Shown one piece after another: positions 5,413-28,425 of a DNA stretch of 64,000 bases. The notes under the pieces are model-generated. The model was not told where the DNA came from. It did no database searches and saw nothing but the letters and a program-made list of their open reading frames with translations. This DNA is from Volvox africanus (lineage: Eukaryota; Chlorophyta; Chlorophyceae; Chlamydomonadales; Volvocaceae), in the NCBI GenBank assembly GCA_030268105.1, contig BSDZ01000005.1:868001-932000 (forward strand). The letters are read 5' to 3'. Within the stretch, counting starts at the first letter, position 1. Each line of letters begins with the position of its first letter. A program made the translations under genes and the position numbers.

Positions 5413-6960
5413 ATGGAAGAAATCACGGAGCCAGCTACATATAAGGAGGCCACTAATGGCCCCAATGCTAAAGAGTGGGGACGTGCCATAGATGAGGAAA
5501 TCATGGCGCAGCTCAAGAACGGAACCTGGGAGGTGGCAAATCCACCGGCTGGTGCCCGGATATTACATTGCCGGTGGGTCTACGTGGTCAAATGTGTAGA
5601 GGATGGCGGGATCGAACGCTTTAAGGCACGTTTGGTGGCGACGGGTAATTAGCAGCGGGCAGAGATTGATTATGGGGAGCTATTCACTCCAACCTCACGC
5701 TTCGCTTCGCTTCGTATGCTCCTGGCGGTGGCTGCGGCAAAAAGGATGTCAATCCACCAACTGGACGTTTCGACAGCTTTCCTGAATGGGGAGCTAGAGG
5801 AGGAGCTTTGGATGGAGCAGCCGCCTGGTTACGAGTCAGCGGATCCTGAACATGCGTGCAAGCTCCTACGATCAATCTATGGGCTGAAACAGGCCCCACA
5901 CTGCTGGTATGTGAAACTAGTAGCGGAGCTGGACAAGCTGGGGTTCAAACCGTCAGTAGCGGACCCAGCGCTGTTCATTAGGAGGGATGAGAAGGAAATC
6001 GTCTGCCTGCTGGTGCACGTGGATGACATCATCATCACCTCAGAAAACGAGGAGCTCATCAAGAGGGTAAAAGCAGTAATTGGGCAAGCTTTCAAGATTC
6101 CAGATCATGGAGAGGCGAAAGTCTTCCTAGGTATGGAGATCAGCCGGGGAGCGAACAGGAAGGTAAAGCTGTTTCAGCGGCACTACATCAAGGAGCTGCT
6201 GCAGCGGCATCAACTCAAAAATGCAAAGCCGCGAACGACTCCATTACTTCCTGGTTCTAGAGTACTGCCAGCAGAAGATGGCAACAGGGAGCTTGCAGAC
6301 AGCACCAAGTACAGGGCGCTTGTCGGCGAACTAAATTACCTGGCGACGAGCACAAGACCCGATATCGCGCAGGCAATAAGCATCCTGGCGCGCATTATGG
6401 GGAAGCCATCTAAGGCTCACATGGACCTGGCTTTGGGGCTGCTTCGATGTTTGGCGGGTACCAAGGAGCTCGGACTATGCTTTGGTGGAGATGGAGCCAT
6501 GGTGAGCTACAGTGATTCCGACTGGGCTGGAGATCCAGCCACTCGGAGATCTACAACTGGCTACGTGTTTCTGCTAGGCGGAGCAACTATCAACTGGAAC
6601 AGCCAATTGCAACGCACGGTGGCAGTTTCGTCAGTGGAGGTGGAGTACCAGGCCACGCAGCTGCAGTACGGAAGGCGCTTTGGCTTCGCAAGCCCGCAGG
6701 AGACTTGGGTTTGGGGTCAGAGGCTATAGAGATTCGGACGGATTCCCAGGGGGCAATGAGCATTGGGAACAACCCGATAACGTCGATTCATTCAAGCACA
6801 TCGACGTGCAGCATCATCTAGTACGGGAGCGAGTCTCTAGGAAGGAAGTTACCCTGTCTCACTGTGCGACGGAGGATATGGTGGCAGATGTGCTGACTAA
6901 GGCACTTGGAGAGATTAAGTCCAGGAGGCGCATTATGGCAATTGGTTGGCGAAGTAAGCA
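5413..6960 (+). pseudogene. Copia-1 reverse transcriptase and RNase H
   Basis: The main open stretch, 5716-6729, begins within the RVT_2 fold. Visible motifs are DVSTAFLNGELEEELWM, the QPPGYE segment, SIYGLKQAPHCWY and the catalytic VHVDDIIITS. RNase H follows with YSDSDWAGDPATRRSTTGY and a WNSQLQRTVAVSSVEVEY segment. A shift near 6690-6730 moves the end (HIDVQHHLVRER, MVADVLTKAL) to another frame at about 6793-6912. The first RT segment (5413-5652) is cut by a stop at 5650. This polymerase is one of the better preserved parts of the element but not functional. Confidence 0.9.
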
Positions 6961-22881: not shown

Positions 22882-23091
22882 ATCATACCATGTCATTGCC
22901 ATGACATATGTATATAACACTGGAGGATATCCTTTTTTATTAGCCTTAGGCTGTAGTCCGTCTCAACGTGAGAATTGAGAGTCACGGATAGCAAAGACCA
23001 TGCAAAAATTTCTTCCTCCAGAACAAAGGATTTGAAGATATATAACATAAAAGCGTCCAATAACAACAAGGCGAGCTGCTGAAATTTGAAA
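22882..23091 (+). other. Possible 5' untranslated region of the non-LTR element
   Basis: AT-rich, non-coding. The first candidate ATG of the downstream signal-peptide frame is 23092, and it is followed directly by GTAAGT, a perfect splice-donor string. Whether that is used cannot be told from sequence. Confidence 0.3.
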
Positions 23092-24892
23092 ATGGTAAGT
23101 CAGCGAAAGGTGAGGCGAAAGACCGCAATCTGTGGCGTTCTGCTATGCCTAACACTCTGCAAGCTGATAACAGCGTTCTGTGACAGCCTGGCTCCGGAAG
23201 CGGTGGAACCCGTGGTTTCCTGTCACCCCCCCTCGTCAATCGACGAACGGGATCGTACATGCAGGAACGTGCCACATAAGGGATGCGCTTACCGGAGGGG
23301 TCACGAAAAGAATGCAGCAAACAATCGAATTTCAACAGCAGCACAACAAGCGGACACTGCCAATGATCCAAATCGGGGAAGCCCAGGCTTCACCATCAAC
23401 TGAGACCAAGCAAAAGGCCGTAAATGTGTATTCCTACTTCCCAGAGTCAGCTGGTCAAGACCAGGATATGGGTCTGAAGGGAGACCATCGAGCACAGGAC
23501 CTCAGCCAGAGCAACTCTTGCCCAGCAGATGACGACTTCTGTGAAAAAGCATTCCACAGACATGATAATTCTCTAAGATACGTTGCAAACAGAACCTGTG
23601 GAAGGATGCCTGAAACAGACTACTCTTCACAAGGAGCAGCTTCTGACTGTATAGACCTAACAGAAAAATACACCATTGCAATCACAAATTGCAACACTAG
23701 AATGACCTGTGGAAAATGCCGCAACTGTGAAGGCAAGGACGTTGAAGACCCAAGAAACTTGCGAGCGAACGACCTAGTAACCAACAAAGCCCACGATAAG
23801 CCACGAACAGGATTATGGGGACATCTAAGAAGATGTATTAAACAACCACCCAACATCAAGGTCACAGCCCAAGGAGGTGTGAACGTTGCTGGGCGAATGC
23901 TGGACAACTTTGGCCGTACAGTGAATGCCCCACAACTGCACCACAAACGCCAGAACTTGCCACCTTCGACTGCAGGGACGATGCTTGGATCGGCTAGCCC
24001 ACGGATCACATCACGCGGCATCCAGAAAGCTTTTCTACCTTATCTTATGCGGGGAAGAAGCACACCGACCGGTGTGCACCTACCAGGGGATGTAATGCGC
24101 GCAGGTGGGCACCTAATAACCCATACCATCAAAGCGCTGCTGCACGATCTCGAAATAATGATCCTCATTGGGTACAGTATCATTGCTGGCCTTGGGGTAA
24201 CGTATGCACTCTACAAAGTCAACAGAGCAGCAAGACAGTGGAATCGAAGCAAAGGGAGATCCCTGCAACAGACAGGCAACGCGATCCTACTTGTGGCTAT
24301 GCTATCAGCGCCCCTCGCCTGTGCGGTAGCACTGAGACCACTGGACTTAGCCATCCGTTTAACGTTACTAACAGTTGGACTGATTTGGGTTTTACGACAC
24401 TTCACTAAACGAATAGCAGCCAGAGCCGTACCCGTAGCAATAGACCTCGCTCTTGCCGGCGCAATCTATGCTGCTGAAACAATCAAGTGGGCAGGTCAGC
24501 ATCCATTGGCGACTAGGCAAATAATGGTGTCAGCAGTCGCACTGGTCACACTATGTGTACAGCTGGCCACAGCAGCCCCAACGGTCCCCATTCTGTCAAT
24601 CAGTATCCCCGCAATTGGTAAAGGCCTGAAGTACATACCAGGGCTAAAGGGACATGCAAGCTGGCTGATACACATCTGTCTGATAGCCGGTTTGGTGATA
24701 CCGCAGAACACGATGTTTGGTACCACAATAACCCTCATCGTTACACTGATAACGACTGCCAGTTGGGATAGAGACCCCGCTCCAGGGACAGAGGGACACC
24801 CTGAAGGAACGGAAAGCACCCAATGTGCGGGCCCACAAGATGAAACCACGCGAACAGAGCGACCCTTACCAACACACGAGCGTGGCGGCTAA
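23092..24892 (+). pseudogene. ORF1: cysteine-bearing multi-pass membrane protein
   Basis: The main frame is open from 23180 to a TAA at 24892 (about 570 codons). Its first ~320 residues are hydrophilic and hold a CX5CX2CX2C cluster (CNTRMTCGKCRNC, near residue 170-185). From about residue 320 there are roughly six or seven hydrophobic segments, such as IMILIGYSIIAGLGVTYAL and IMVSAVALVTLCVQLATA. The last ~50 residues are charged. Overlapping in another frame, 23092-23403 begins with a basic stretch and hydrophobic core (AICGVLLCLTLCKLITAFC) that looks like a signal peptide or anchor, so a frameshift or splice may join it to the main frame. I recognise no family. It is a membrane protein by composition; envelope-like, channel-like or host-derived roles are all open. 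Confidence 0.55.
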
Positions 24893-24933
24893 CAGGACCC
24901 GGGGCCCCATCAAAACAAGTCACATGGCCGATA

Positions 24934-25524
24934 ATGACAAACCCGCACAACCCAGATGACACCCTTTACCACGAGCAACAGCAGAAAGAGCTCTGCATGA
25001 TCCACGCCATAAACAACCTACTAGGGGGACCGTACATCGACCCACAGCACGTACTGCAATACTGTCGTACAATGCTGCAACACATGGCTGACCGGGAACT
25101 CCACAATGCAGCCGCCACATGGCAACTAACCCACAACCAAAACACAGGCAACTTCTCAACGCTGGCAATCAATCCATACCTACGCTACAACGTGCCGGTG
25201 TGAACTGCACAGCAAAGAAATGACTCCGCACACCCGCATATTGCCTCCATAGGGAGTGGACAGGAAATAAAACCCAACGTGACGTTAAGCAGCGTACTAC
25301 ACCAACTGCCAGAACACGCACGCAACTGGGGCTTCCTCGTACACCTCCCAGGCCATGCAATAGCAGTACGAAAACACAAGGACCGGTGGTACATCCACGA
25401 CTCTCCGCAACCGCAACCTGTGGAACTCGGTGACGAAAACGCCACATGGCCACGTGAACCTGGCGCAATATACACCCTAAATCTTCGGCACTACACAGAA
25501 CCCACGGCAACGCATGTGGACCTG
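24934..25524 (+). other. Josephin (ataxin-3-like) cysteine protease domain
   Basis: The N-terminus shows the family signature: a Gln-rich oxyanion segment YHEQQQKEL, catalytic Cys in LCMIHAINNLLGG (residue 21), the GNFSTLAINPYL block where Josephins have their GxF/IxVI strand, the His in LPGHAIAVRK (residue 141) and the Asp in RWYIHDS (residue 156). Order and spacing fit a Cys-His-Asp/Asn triad of a Josephin of about 190 residues. One TGA falls at codon 90, between the Cys and His halves. OTU or Ulp1 proteases, the kinds known in other retroelements, have different signatures (inference from motif reading, no profile search). Confidence 0.75.
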
Positions 25525-26121
25525 TGAGACATAATACCCCCAGACACATGGGTGCGCACAGACCACATCGAGTATATGGAGATCCAAACAACCAACGGGA
25601 CCACATGCACAACAACGAGACTGCCACAAGGCCAAAAGTGGCAGAAGATCAAACACCCACGTGCAACGCAACTAGCCCGCCAAACGGGGAGAACATTAAC
25701 CAAGCCACCAGGAACACGCACACGACCGCAGCCAACTGCACAGGACAACGACCATCCACCAGCACCCAACCCGACAGCCGTGCCTCTCCCATCCCTCTTA
25801 GAGAGAGCCCCGCACGAATGCCCCCGCCAAGAGTGACATCCCGGGCACACTCCGCCGCATATTCAACTCACGGACGCGCAATGCAACAGACCCAAACCGC
25901 TGACGACCACTGACCATCTCCGACGGGCTAACAAACGCACCAATCCAGCCGGGGCTGAACGCCCCGGGGAAACGACACACACAACAAGGGAAAGTGGGAA
26001 CGTCAGTGAACCCAGTGCCCAGCACCCAAGACTGTCGACCACCCCTGTAAGAAACACCACACTCTCACACCCGGAAAACGCAAACCCCTCAGAAAGCCGC
26101 AATATAACAAACCACAGGTAC
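25525..26121 (+). other. Low-complexity Pro/Thr/His-rich linker of ORF2
   Basis: The same frame as the Josephin and endonuclease domains stays open here except for TGA at 25525 and 25834. The composition is Pro, Thr, His, Asn and Arg rich with no recognisable fold, like the flexible linkers between domains in other LINE ORF2 proteins. Confidence 0.55.
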
Positions 26122-26982
26122 ATGCACATCGTCACTCACAAGGTGCGAGGACTGGGGATGAGCTTCCTCAGTACACTGTGTAATGTGCGGACATGGGATG
26201 CCGATATCATTGTTCTAACCGAAACCAAAACCAGCAACCGCATTGGATGGATGAAAGACGCCCTACACAAAGAGCCGCAGGGATACAGACTTTACTGCAG
26301 TTCGAAACCACGTAACTCTGGCAAGGAACACCTCACATCAGGTGTCGCAATTCCGATCGGTGCCTGTTACACCCGTGCAGGACAAGTGACACACATATCA
26401 CCGCCGCCCCTGCTACATGGGCACCTGTGCCAATGCAAGATCTCCACGTCAGCAACTACCCCCCTACACGTGCTGGGAATCTACTGTCCGGAAGACACCT
26501 TAGTCCGAACCAACATATACACGCACTGCCAGACAGTTCTAAGACAGGCCAAGAATAACGGGGAACATGTAATCCTGGCCGGAGACTTTAATGCCGTCTT
26601 GAACCCTGACGACCGCAGCACAGGCCTGCTTGACACAGCAGACCGACTACACCTCATATTCATCACCGATAACATCCTCACACCGGTGCCTGAAAACCGC
26701 TCCCCCCGCCACCCGTCCTTCAAACAATGGAGCAAGGAACGCTGTACACACCAAAGCCGAATAGACGATATCCTGATGTGCCCCGCTCTACACGTGAGCA
26801 TAGAAGCGGGGACACCTGCAAACGGGAACACACCACAAGCGTACTGCACTGTTTCTGTCGCCGGAGGAAACTTCGACCATAACCCCGTACATGCCCGCCT
26901 GCCCACCGACGCTTATCCGCCTGTGGGACGCCAAGAGACCGGCGACCCCAAAGAACCAAGACGGAGACGGGGTCCAAATTAA
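26122..26982 (+). other. AP-like endonuclease domain of ORF2
   Basis: The domain has the ordered motifs of LINE endonucleases: DADIIVLTETK (metal-binding Glu), VLGIYCPED, VILAGDFNAVLNPDDR (Asp and Asn), QSRIDDILM and a terminal FDHNPVHARL (Asp-His pair). Length is about 240 residues, normal for the family. All expected catalytic residues can be seen. The first motif usually contains N (WN or NxR); here the strand reads HIVTHKVRGL, which is a weak match. Confidence 0.85.
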
Positions 26983-27173
26983 ATGGAAAAACGTGATACT
27001 ACCGGTCCCGAACACCACAATTCGTGCAGCGCAATCAAAGATGGATGCCTCGCTCACGTCGGACATCCTCAGCCTCCAGGAATACCTCCGCCCAGCCGTC
27101 CATGAGATTGAGGCTGGCATTGCGAAACACACCGAGGACCCCACTGATATGACAGCCACCCGCTTGATGACAC

Positions 27174-27988
27174 TGTTGTACGCGGGTTCAATCACTGTTT
27201 ACATTTATGAAGGCCGCAATGCATTCAGATATCATGAAGCATAATACAATCATATTAGCATGATATACTCGAGTATATCTAGCTAATCAGGCATGTCGCA
27301 TCATCATTCACGACATCACGCTGTCGGTCAACATGTTTGACTCGAGGCTGATAATTAATGCGCGATCTATCCATTGGCATATTATATCACGTAATAATAC
27401 TTTGAGTAGTATTACCTCACCTGTGTCATAAACCATACGCGTATGCAAGAATGCGACGATCGCGATGGTTGGGTCAGCAACCGAATATCGATATTCGGAT
27501 CTTTGCATATTGCATGCGTTGCATCCAATAATATCACGAATGACACGATATTTAGAGCAGTCTTACCAAGGTACTCACACTTGAGATCGTAATCCAGTGA
27601 GACCTGTACTGCACATCGGTATCGCGACGTGATAGGTGCGAGGACGGCCGCCTAGAGACCGAAGTCGGTGCAACGCTAACTTTGGACCAAGTATTCGAGT
27701 ACTTAACTCTATTCGATACGCATACATATGATATAATCATTTACATTCGGCCTGAGCTATTATAGCATTCCATCTGCAGCCGAGTGATGAACATTGCCCA
27801 CGGGGTCTGACGGCAGACTGTAATTCTGTAACTGAAGAACATTGTAAGTTGAATCTTTCCTTGCTATTGAGTCTTCCGCTGTCTACTATTCGCATTGGCT
27901 TGCCTTGCTGTTCATAAGATTGGTACGCACGCAGCTAACACCTAGACGTGCAGAGCTAATACATGATTGAAGAAGGAAGGATACAACA
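27174..27988 (+). repeat. Gypsy A 5' LTR (left arm)
   Basis: Begins TGTTGTACGCGGG and ends GGATACAACA; 815 bases, equal to its partner at 52570-53384. It contains three perfect palindromes: GATATACTCGAGTATATC (from 27261), CATACGCGTATG (27434-27445) and CCGAATATCGATATTCGG (27481-27498). Tiny frames of 60-70 codons recur in every LTR copy but are shadows of the repeat. Confidence 0.9.
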
Positions 27989-27992
27989 AATT

Positions 27993-28010
27993 TGGTAGCG
28001 AGACGGTTCG
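27993..28010 (+). other. Primer binding site of gypsy A
   Basis: TGGTAGCGAGACGGTT begins four bases after the LTR. The right-arm copy (52548-52565, minus strand) keeps three more bases: its complement AACCTGGTCTCGCTACCA looks like a tRNA T-arm and 3' acceptor end with CCA, and the AACCTGG part matches initiator tRNA-Met of plants. It is the standard 3'-end priming site, unlike the copia elements here. Confidence 0.6.
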
Positions 28011-28425
28011 ACTCACGGCTGTCTCATCGTCACTAGCGAAGAGTAGGTTCTCGCACGGGCGAGCGGCGGCGAAGAGTATCACGAGATAACCTCGCCGGAA
28101 AGCTGATACGGTACTATCCTCTACCTGAATTCCTGATACAATATCGGTCTGTTAAATAACAACCATACTTTTGTTACCCGCAAGGTCTTAAGTCCGCAGA
28201 AGAAATTCTGTTGCCATCACACTTGAAGTCGCCCCCTTGATAGAGTTGGGTATCGGACAGGATCAGTTGCCGAAGAGATATCAATTTGAAGGTGACAACA
28301 TACTGGTGGGTTACGTTACCGTCCACGTCGGAGTTTTACTCGGGTGAGAACAGTACACGAGAGGAAATCCCTAAGGTACAGTTTTACCTCCACCTATTTT
28401 CCTTGTGAAGTCTTAATTGGAATAC

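What the first reader, a model, noticed from the sequence alone, without database searches (positions are those of the whole stretch)
23092..27173. Non-LTR retrotransposon that encodes a Josephin protease fused upstream of its endonuclease
Seen: one frame links a Josephin-type domain (Cys, His and Asp in the right order and motif context) through a Pro/Thr-rich linker to an AP-like endonuclease with GDFNA, SRIDDIL and DHNPV motifs. Known: some LINE clades carry other cysteine proteases (OTU-like in Dualen/RandI-type elements, Ulp1-like in NeSL-type elements). I do not know of a Josephin domain in this role. Inference: it was captured from a host deubiquitinase and may cleave the polyprotein or counter host ubiquitin-dependent silencing.
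Basis: partly seen in the sequence, partly recalled or inferred. Interest (0 to 1): 0.88.

Follow-up and report, generated by a model that had tools for sequence, protein, structure and literature searches.

The report
Jumping gene carrying a Josephin protease
A retrotransposon in what looks like a green alga carries, inside its one giant protein, an enzyme domain of a kind known from ubiquitin-removing proteins, and that domain shows signs of selection but has lost the residue thought to let such enzymes recognise ubiquitin, so it may now cut the transposon's own protein.

Summary
Window 24934-26982 is one frame, broken by three TGA, joining a Josephin domain to an AP-type endonuclease. It is a decayed, cut-off copy of a non-LTR retrotransposon. 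The genome has at least 21 such Josephin matches plus two apparent host Josephin genes. In 20 copies read, the endonuclease follows in 19 and reverse transcriptase in 14. The fullest copy read is about 10.75 kb with a 212-bp target duplication and a 3,520-codon frame (one stop): hydrophobic N-terminus, Josephin, APE, RT, a sub-threshold PCIF1-like stretch, RNase H, and a C-terminal CCHC plus PD...E region like the second endonuclease of Dualen/RandI elements. Variants shared among copies show selection on Josephin as strong as on RT. Catalytic Cys and His are kept in 20 of 20 copies, but the next residue after the His is Ala or Thr in 20 of 20, never the aromatic "gatekeeper" of deubiquitinases (PMC7391069). 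I favour a polyprotein-cutting protease over a deubiquitinase; no activity was shown. New variant of a known kind.

The parts
23042..27173 (+). 5' part of one decayed LINE copy: from the 5' end shared with 9 other copies (true start may lie up to about 20 bases further up) to the junction with an LTR
   Evidence: 5' end aligned over 10 copies; LTR junction
23092..24112 (+). N-terminal part of the element frame, start codon at 23092, signal-peptide-like hydrophobic start; frame changes near 23343
   Evidence: tblastn with the C20 copy, 96% and 83% identical; hydropathy on the C20 copy
24113..24865 (+). region with several (about six) hydrophobic, membrane-spanning-like segments
   Evidence: tblastn 94%; hydropathy on the C20 copy
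24934..25485 (+). Josephin domain, interrupted by one TGA; catalytic Cys, His and Asp present
   Evidence: Pfam PF02099 in both halves; tblastn 97%; residues
25486..26121 (+). Pro/Thr-rich linker, interrupted by two TGA
   Evidence: tblastn 88%; translation
26122..26832 (+). AP-type endonuclease domain
   Evidence: Pfam PF03372 29.9 bits; tblastn 91%
26833..27173 (+). stretch between endonuclease and RT, cut off by an LTR element before the RT
   Evidence: tblastn 96% and 89%
27174..28100 (+). LTR-like repeat (at least its first 927 bases) that cuts the LINE off; not part of the LINE; Gypsy-like by eye from the frames
   Evidence: nine further matches in the window and matches in other loci

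Best explanation
The window holds the broken 5' part of a non-LTR retrotransposon family, probably of a green alga, whose single giant polyprotein carries a Josephin-type cysteine protease domain between a hydrophobic N-terminal part and the APE-RT-RNase H machinery (anatomy: about 0.95). Most likely mechanism (about 0.5, inferred): the element moves as LINEs do, by endonuclease nicking and target-primed reverse transcription, and the Josephin domain is the polyprotein's own protease, releasing the nucleic-acid enzymes from the membrane-spanning N-terminus or trimming the linkers. Shown: the fusion, the kept catalytic residues, constraint on variants shared among copies, and a target duplication at the one copy read at both ends. 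Inferred: that it cuts the polyprotein, where it cuts, and that the N-terminus sits in a membrane.
For: Josephin over cut-off in 21 element places plus 2 apparent host genes; APE after it in 19 of 20 copies read and RT in 14; TM region and Josephin in the same frame in 14 of 18 copies covering the junction; L010 frame holds Josephin, APE and RT in one 1,839-codon stretch. Constraint: for variants shared by two or more of 19 copies, Josephin S=30, N=16, ratio to neutral 0.30, 0 of 500 simulations as low; RT 0.37; APE 0.74; linker 0.80; TM 0.88. Cys and His 20 of 20, Asp 18 and Glu 2. Residue after His Ala 16, Thr 4, whereas a His-[Phe/Tyr/Trp] motif marks most deubiquitinase families, Josephin included, and changing it in JOSD2 (W126A) abolished reaction with ubiquitin probes (PMC7391069, passages); the host's own ATXN3-like gene keeps His-Trp. 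Precedent for a deubiquitinase-type fold that cuts a polyprotein at sites that are not Gly-Gly: TYMV PRO/DUB (PMC5695851, passages).
Against: No cleavage site was found, and none was searched for. ZUFSP/ZUP1 is a deubiquitinase without the aromatic residue (PMC7391069), so its loss does not exclude one; in the JOSD2 mutant all reactivity was lost, so the loss could also mean an inactive enzyme. When all distinct substitutions are pooled, the Josephin is not significantly constrained (0.80; 109 of 1,000 simulations as low), and its variants seen in one copy only lean to amino-acid changes (1.63; 484 of 500 simulations at or below); the case rests on shared variants, which are few and not independent of the family tree. 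The predicted Josephin model is poor (mean pLDDT 44.6).
Confidence: 0.6

Rival explanations
1. The Josephin domain is a true deubiquitinase acting in cis or on host proteins: it strips ubiquitin from the element's large protein or from chromatin, protecting it from degradation or silencing.
For: Pfam Josephin over cut-off; nearest solved relatives by sequence are Josephin-2 and ataxin-3, both deubiquitinases; catalytic residues kept; other mobile elements carry OTU, Ulp1 or C19 domains and a role of the ubiquitin pathway in transposition has been proposed (PMC2836005, passages).
Against: [quoted passage not shown] the matching change in JOSD2 abolished ubiquitin-probe reactivity (PMC7391069, passages).
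Confidence: 0.3
2. The domain is a non-catalytic binding module (for ubiquitin or for the element's own protein), conserved for its fold.
For: Loss of the aromatic residue may weaken catalysis, as in JOSD2 W126A (PMC7391069, passages); two copies have Glu in place of the third catalytic residue.
Against: Cys and His are invariant in 20 of 20 copies while other residues vary.
Confidence: 0.12
3. The adjacency is accidental: a host Josephin gene or pseudogene beside a LINE, or an assembly error.
For: The window copy alone is broken and has no RT.
Against: 20 copies on 13 contigs keep the same order, ten sharing one 5' end with mostly different flanks; two apparent host genes are separate.
Confidence: 0.01

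Closest known systems
Dualen/RandI non-LTR retrotransposons (described from Chlamydomonas reinhardtii, recalled)
   Same: APE and, by motif, a restriction-like endonuclease in one protein (both in Dualen: PMC3636483, PMC4640811, passages); RNase H (PMC4640811, passages); a cysteine protease (recalled from the abstract of Kojima and Fujiwara 2005, which is not held); known in green algae (PMC8226300, passages)
   Different: Protease here is Josephin by Pfam (no OTU match listed); hydrophobic N-terminus and PCIF1-like stretch, which I cannot compare with described Dualen elements; membership by RT tree not tested
NeSL and Utopia elements with an Ulp1-like protease (PMC4640811, passages)
   Same: LINEs of which some have an N-terminal cysteine protease related to ubiquitin-like modifier proteases; a zinc finger and RLE at the C-terminus
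   Different: Their protease is Ulp1-like and their endonuclease is an RLE; here Josephin and APE
Ataxin-3 / Josephin-1 and -2 deubiquitinases
   Same: Josephin family by profile, Gln, Cys, His and Asp in order
   Different: [quoted passage not shown] fused into a LINE polyprotein
TYMV PRO/DUB (viral OTU-like protease)
   Same: Deubiquitinase-type fold inside a polyprotein, there shown to cut the polyprotein (PMC5695851, passages)
   Different: OTU fold, plant RNA virus; both activities shown there, none shown here

Membership tests
Non-LTR retrotransposon | Reverse transcriptase | tested here: met
   RVT_1 64.5 bits in L010 and 93.3 bits in L011; best solved relatives R2 (81.8 bits); LINE-1 ORF2 58.5 bits. 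No RT match in the window copy
Non-LTR retrotransposon | APE or restriction-like endonuclease, no LTRs, target duplication, repeat tail | tested here: met
   APE PF03372 34.1 bits; common 5' end in 10 of 20 copies; one copy with 212-bp target duplication and an (ATT)n tail. Only this one copy was read at its 3' end with its flank
Dualen/RandI | APE and restriction-like endonuclease in one element (PMC3636483, PMC4640811, passages) | tested here: inconclusive
   APE met. The C-terminus has C-x2-C-x11-H-x4-C (second Cys pair; R2-type spacing is CX2-3CX7-8HX4C, PMC5678591, passages), RHN, RPD and IIEVGYT; most of these are kept in four partly decayed relatives 37-59% identical, not all in each; Pfam and PDB sequence searches gave no significant match
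Dualen/RandI | RNase H | tested here: met
   PF00075 32.7 bits in L030 and 48.6 bits in L012, cut-off 25.8
Dualen/RandI | Position of the RT between the RLE and APE groups | not tested
   No reference LINE set was at hand
Josephin family PF02099 | Profile match over the curated cut-off | tested here: met
   39.2 and 40.7 bits in two copies; 23 of 23 listed places in the genome over cut-off, 21 of them of the element
Josephin family PF02099 | Catalytic Gln, Cys, His, Asp/Asn in order | tested here: met
   Gln (five before the Cys) 19 of 20 (one stop codon), Cys 20 of 20, His 20 of 20, Asp 18 and Glu 2
Josephin family PF02099 | Josephin fold | tested here: inconclusive
   [not shown]
[quoted passage not shown]
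   Ala 16, Thr 4 of 20 copies
NeSL/Utopia | Ulp1-like protease in those that have one; RLE as the endonuclease | tested here: not met
   Josephin and APE found, no Ulp1 match listed

The most novel reading that the evidence does not exclude
A Josephin domain was taken into a dual-endonuclease LINE and turned from a deubiquitinase into the polyprotein protease of the element: as far as I know the first Josephin endopeptidase, in a 3,520-codon polyprotein that also carries membrane spans and a relative of the RNA cap methyltransferase PCIF1.
Probability: 0.35. Interest if true: 0.78.

Novelty: new variant of a known kind. Interest (0 to 1): 0.6.

Why it matters
LINEs with cysteine proteases are known, but as far as I know what the proteases do is not settled. 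Here one family carries a different ubiquitin-type fold, shows constraint on it as strong as on the RT, and has lost the residue that marks ubiquitin recognition. That makes a clear either/or test possible (polyprotein cutting against deubiquitination) with one small domain, and would help tell whether ubiquitin-type folds in mobile elements serve processing or evasion.

Tried and rejected
Host gene beside a LINE: rejected by the copies. Alternative genetic code: not needed; at the TGA inside the window's Josephin, 16 of 20 copies are open and 4 (the window included) have a stop. Relatives elsewhere: viral contigs with the Josephin piece and with the RT piece, and genome contigs with the RT piece, gave none; these are viral, bacterial and archaeal collections, so this says little about other algae. 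The search for homologous proteins could not be used. The RLE was not confirmed by Pfam or PDB sequence search (the PDB rows at E 0.44 and above are glycerol kinase and a zinc finger, taken as chance). PCIF1_WW stays below its cut-off in 19 of 19 places (best 30.7 against 31.1 bits), and the PDB search of L030 listed no PCIF1, so I report it as a lead. Host: no RuBisCO large subunit match in the assembly; chlorophyll a/b-type proteins are present. The 18S search did not complete. Literature: Josephin with retrotransposon as whole words gave 6 papers, none about a Josephin in an element by title and start of abstract (listing only); the looser search gave 61 papers, 20 listed, where I suspect the name Josephine explains many hits. 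Further listings: Dualen 7 of 7 papers, RandI and proteases 20 of 454, PCIF1 and retrotransposons 10 of 40 (none of the ten holds the word PCIF1), OTU and Dualen 15 of 165. Kojima and Fujiwara 2005 is not held under the two ids that I recalled. Paper calls that failed: 12, 13, 15, 21, 27, 38, 49, 57. Passages were read in PMC4640811, PMC6431247, PMC3636483, PMC8226300, PMC5678591, PMC6338049, PMC7391069, PMC5695851, PMC5718144, PMC4455052, PMC2836005 and PMC12747079; no paper was read whole.
Full report
What is in the window. Searched as separate open pieces, 24844-25200 and 25204-25524 match the two halves of Pfam Josephin (26.6 and 20.8 bits; cut-off 26) and 25837-26979 matches the AP-type endonuclease family PF03372 (29.9 bits; cut-off 24.5). 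Between 24844 and 26982 the only interruptions are three TGA codons. The copy starts at the 5' end shared by the family (23042), its start codon is at 23092, and it is cut off at 27173, where an LTR-like repeat begins. No RT match lies in the window, and upstream of the Josephin its frame is shifted relative to most copies. It is a dead copy.

The family. Josephin matches lie in 23 places of the 141-Mb genome (the tool calls such counts lower bounds). Two are apparent host genes: an ATXN3-like one (C22; pieces separated by stop-bearing stretches, with EHWFTLRR and FNSL) and a JOSD-like exon (C4:3165733). The other 21 belong to the element. I read 20 of these 21 with their surroundings (18 fetched 10-kb stretches, one of which holds two copies, plus the window; the remaining one, on C88, was not put through). 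In 20 of 20 the linker follows the Josephin, in 19 the endonuclease (L022 lacks it, L020 has only its first part), in 14 the RT (not in L013, L014, L020, L022, L025 and the window), and in 18 the hydrophobic region precedes it (all but L022 and L025; partial in L021 and L015). L013 and L014 are near-identical duplicates. Open frames around the Josephin reach 2,257 codons. The hydrophobic region and the Josephin are in one frame in 14 of the 18 copies that cover the junction, some of these with a stop codon; four copies, the window among them, are shifted there. So the fusion is the family's normal state.

The whole element. The copy at C20 (L010, L030, L031) has a frame of 3,520 codons from the start codon to TAA with one stop inside. 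Pfam finds Josephin (residues 625-777 of the L010 frame, 39.2 bits), endonuclease (1011-1227, 34.1), RT (64.5, and its rest after the stop, 28.2, below 29.6 alone), then RNase H (32.7) and a sub-threshold PCIF1_WW match (23.9 against 31.1); this copy lacks 14 residues of the PCIF1-like stretch that ten others have. The RT is nearest to R2 (81.8 bits), with LINE-1 ORF2 at 58.5, among solved proteins. The N-terminus has a signal-peptide-like start and about six hydrophobic segments by hydropathy. Flanks of this copy share an exact 212-bp repeat, a very long target duplication, and a run of ATT precedes the second repeat. From the first repeat's end to the second's start the element is about 10.75 kb. 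Ten of 20 copies share the 5' end. Their flanks differ, except that L013/L014 and L012/L020 share theirs and L009, L017 and the window share a few further bases, so the exact first base is not fixed.

Second endonuclease. The last 226 residues have a Cys-Cys-His-Cys knuckle (C-x2-C-x11-H-x4-C counted from the second Cys pair), then RHN, RPD and IIEVGYT. Four partly decayed relatives 37-59% identical in this part keep most of these motifs, though none of the four keeps every one in frame. RLE LINEs have a CX2-3CX7-8HX4C knuckle followed by a PD-(D/E)XK-type nuclease (PMC5678591, PMC3636483, passages), and Dualen is the group with both APE and RLE (PMC3636483, PMC4640811, passages). No database match supports it, so I call the element Dualen-like, not a proven member. 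Dualen elements occur in all species compared in PMC8226300 (passages). The host has chlorophyll a/b-type proteins. One of them matches best, by summed score, the multi-domain LHCI chains of entry 9vfj (which I recall as euglenoid) and next, among single-domain chains, chloroplastic LHCII chains (recalled as Chlamydomonas). A green alga is inferred; a euglenoid is not excluded.

Is the Josephin domain working? I counted substitutions against neutral placement with base and CpG context kept, over 19 copies for the Josephin and 8 to 18 for other regions (L014 dropped as a duplicate of L013, and copies covering less than about 70% of a region left out). Variants found in only one copy look neutral or decayed (Josephin ratio 1.63, 484 of 500 simulations at or below it). 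Variants shared by two or more copies, which should mostly predate insertion, show constraint: Josephin 0.30 (S 30, N 16; 0 of 500 simulations as low), RT 0.37 (1 of 500), its continuation 0.21 (0 of 500), APE 0.74 (37 of 500), linker 0.80 (72 of 500), TM 0.88 (163 of 500). Pooled over all substitutions the Josephin signal is not significant (0.80, 109 of 1,000), as expected if most changes followed insertion, but it must be told. Pairwise pooled dN/dS, over 20 Josephin copies, agrees: Josephin 0.24, RT 0.27, preRT 0.40, APE 0.42, linker 0.55, TM 0.60.

What it probably does. Catalytic Cys and His are present in 20 of 20 copies; the third residue is Asp in 18 and Glu in 2; the oxyanion Gln in 19 (one stop). 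But the residue after the His is Ala in 16 and Thr in 4. PMC7391069 (passages) reports that an aromatic residue there marks most deubiquitinase families, Josephin included, contacts Gly-75 of ubiquitin, and that JOSD2 W126A loses all reaction with ubiquitin probes; ZUFSP/ZUP1 is a deubiquitinase without it. The five solved Josephin chains whose alignments were printed and the host ATXN3-like gene have Trp there. So the domain in this element is predicted to accept other substrates, or to be a poor enzyme. Given its place between a hydrophobic N-terminus and the enzymes, the polyprotein itself is the simplest substrate; TYMV shows that a ubiquitin-type fold can cut its own polyprotein at non-Gly-Gly sites (PMC5695851, passages). 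This is inference; about 0.5 for polyprotein cutting, 0.3 for deubiquitination, the rest for binding or unknown.

Origin. Around the catalytic Cys the element's domain shares 15 of 37 residues with the host ATXN3-like gene, 9 of 37 with the JOSD-like one, 13 of 37 with Josephin-2 and with ataxin-3 of the PDB. There is no sign of recent capture from a host gene. The source remains open.

Novelty. No paper in the searched library describes a Josephin in a retrotransposon as far as titles and starts of abstracts show (open-licence PMC only, 26 listed rows). LINEs with Ulp1-like proteases are known (PMC4640811). Other mobile elements with OTU, Ulp1 or C19 domains are known (PMC2836005, passages). 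I could not read the Dualen paper, so its cysteine protease may turn out to be the same domain under another name; that is the main risk to novelty. I file it as a new variant of a known kind.

Noticed in passing
L030 (C20 copy), frame residues 134-220; 19 places in the genome: Between RT and RNase H a stretch resembles PCIF1 (an RNA cap adenosine methyltransferase, recalled), below cut-off in 19 of 19 places (best 30.7 of 31.1 bits). Ten other fetched copies and L030 keep ERFSSPLNC; the ten have NPDP where I recall NPPF in PCIF1, and L030 lacks 14 residues there.
   Followed up: partly
L010 3058-3867; window 24113-24865: About six membrane-spanning-like segments and a signal-peptide-like start in a LINE protein; no significant constraint on the TM region.
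   Followed up: partly
L010 1795-2006 and L031 1360-1571: Target duplication of 212 exact bases, very long for a LINE; one copy only.
   Followed up: partly
window 23092-23100 and the 5' ends: The start codon is followed at once by GTAAGT, a perfect splice-donor consensus: seen in full in 7 of the 10 copies with the 5' end; two are cut in print after GTAA; L011 has lost the ATG but keeps GTAAGT. May be chance.
   Followed up: no
window 24001-26000: Strong strand bias of the element's coding strand: AT skew +0.32, GC skew -0.16.
   Followed up: no
L021 (C25), Josephin at 4940-4389 and 5566-6117: Two copies of the element in head-to-head orientation, their Josephin domains about 600 bases apart.
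   Followed up: no
window 27174-28100 and 53384-52456: A 98.8% identical LTR-like pair in opposite orientation, with eight further matches at 80-87% in the window: layers of nested LTR elements and perhaps an inversion.
   Followed up: no
genome-wide, e.g. G000:C5:853784 and C5:826300 near the window: A second, much more abundant LINE-like family with RT about 25% identical, often in a 1,559-codon frame; the Josephin search listed no match that I could assign to it.
   Followed up: no
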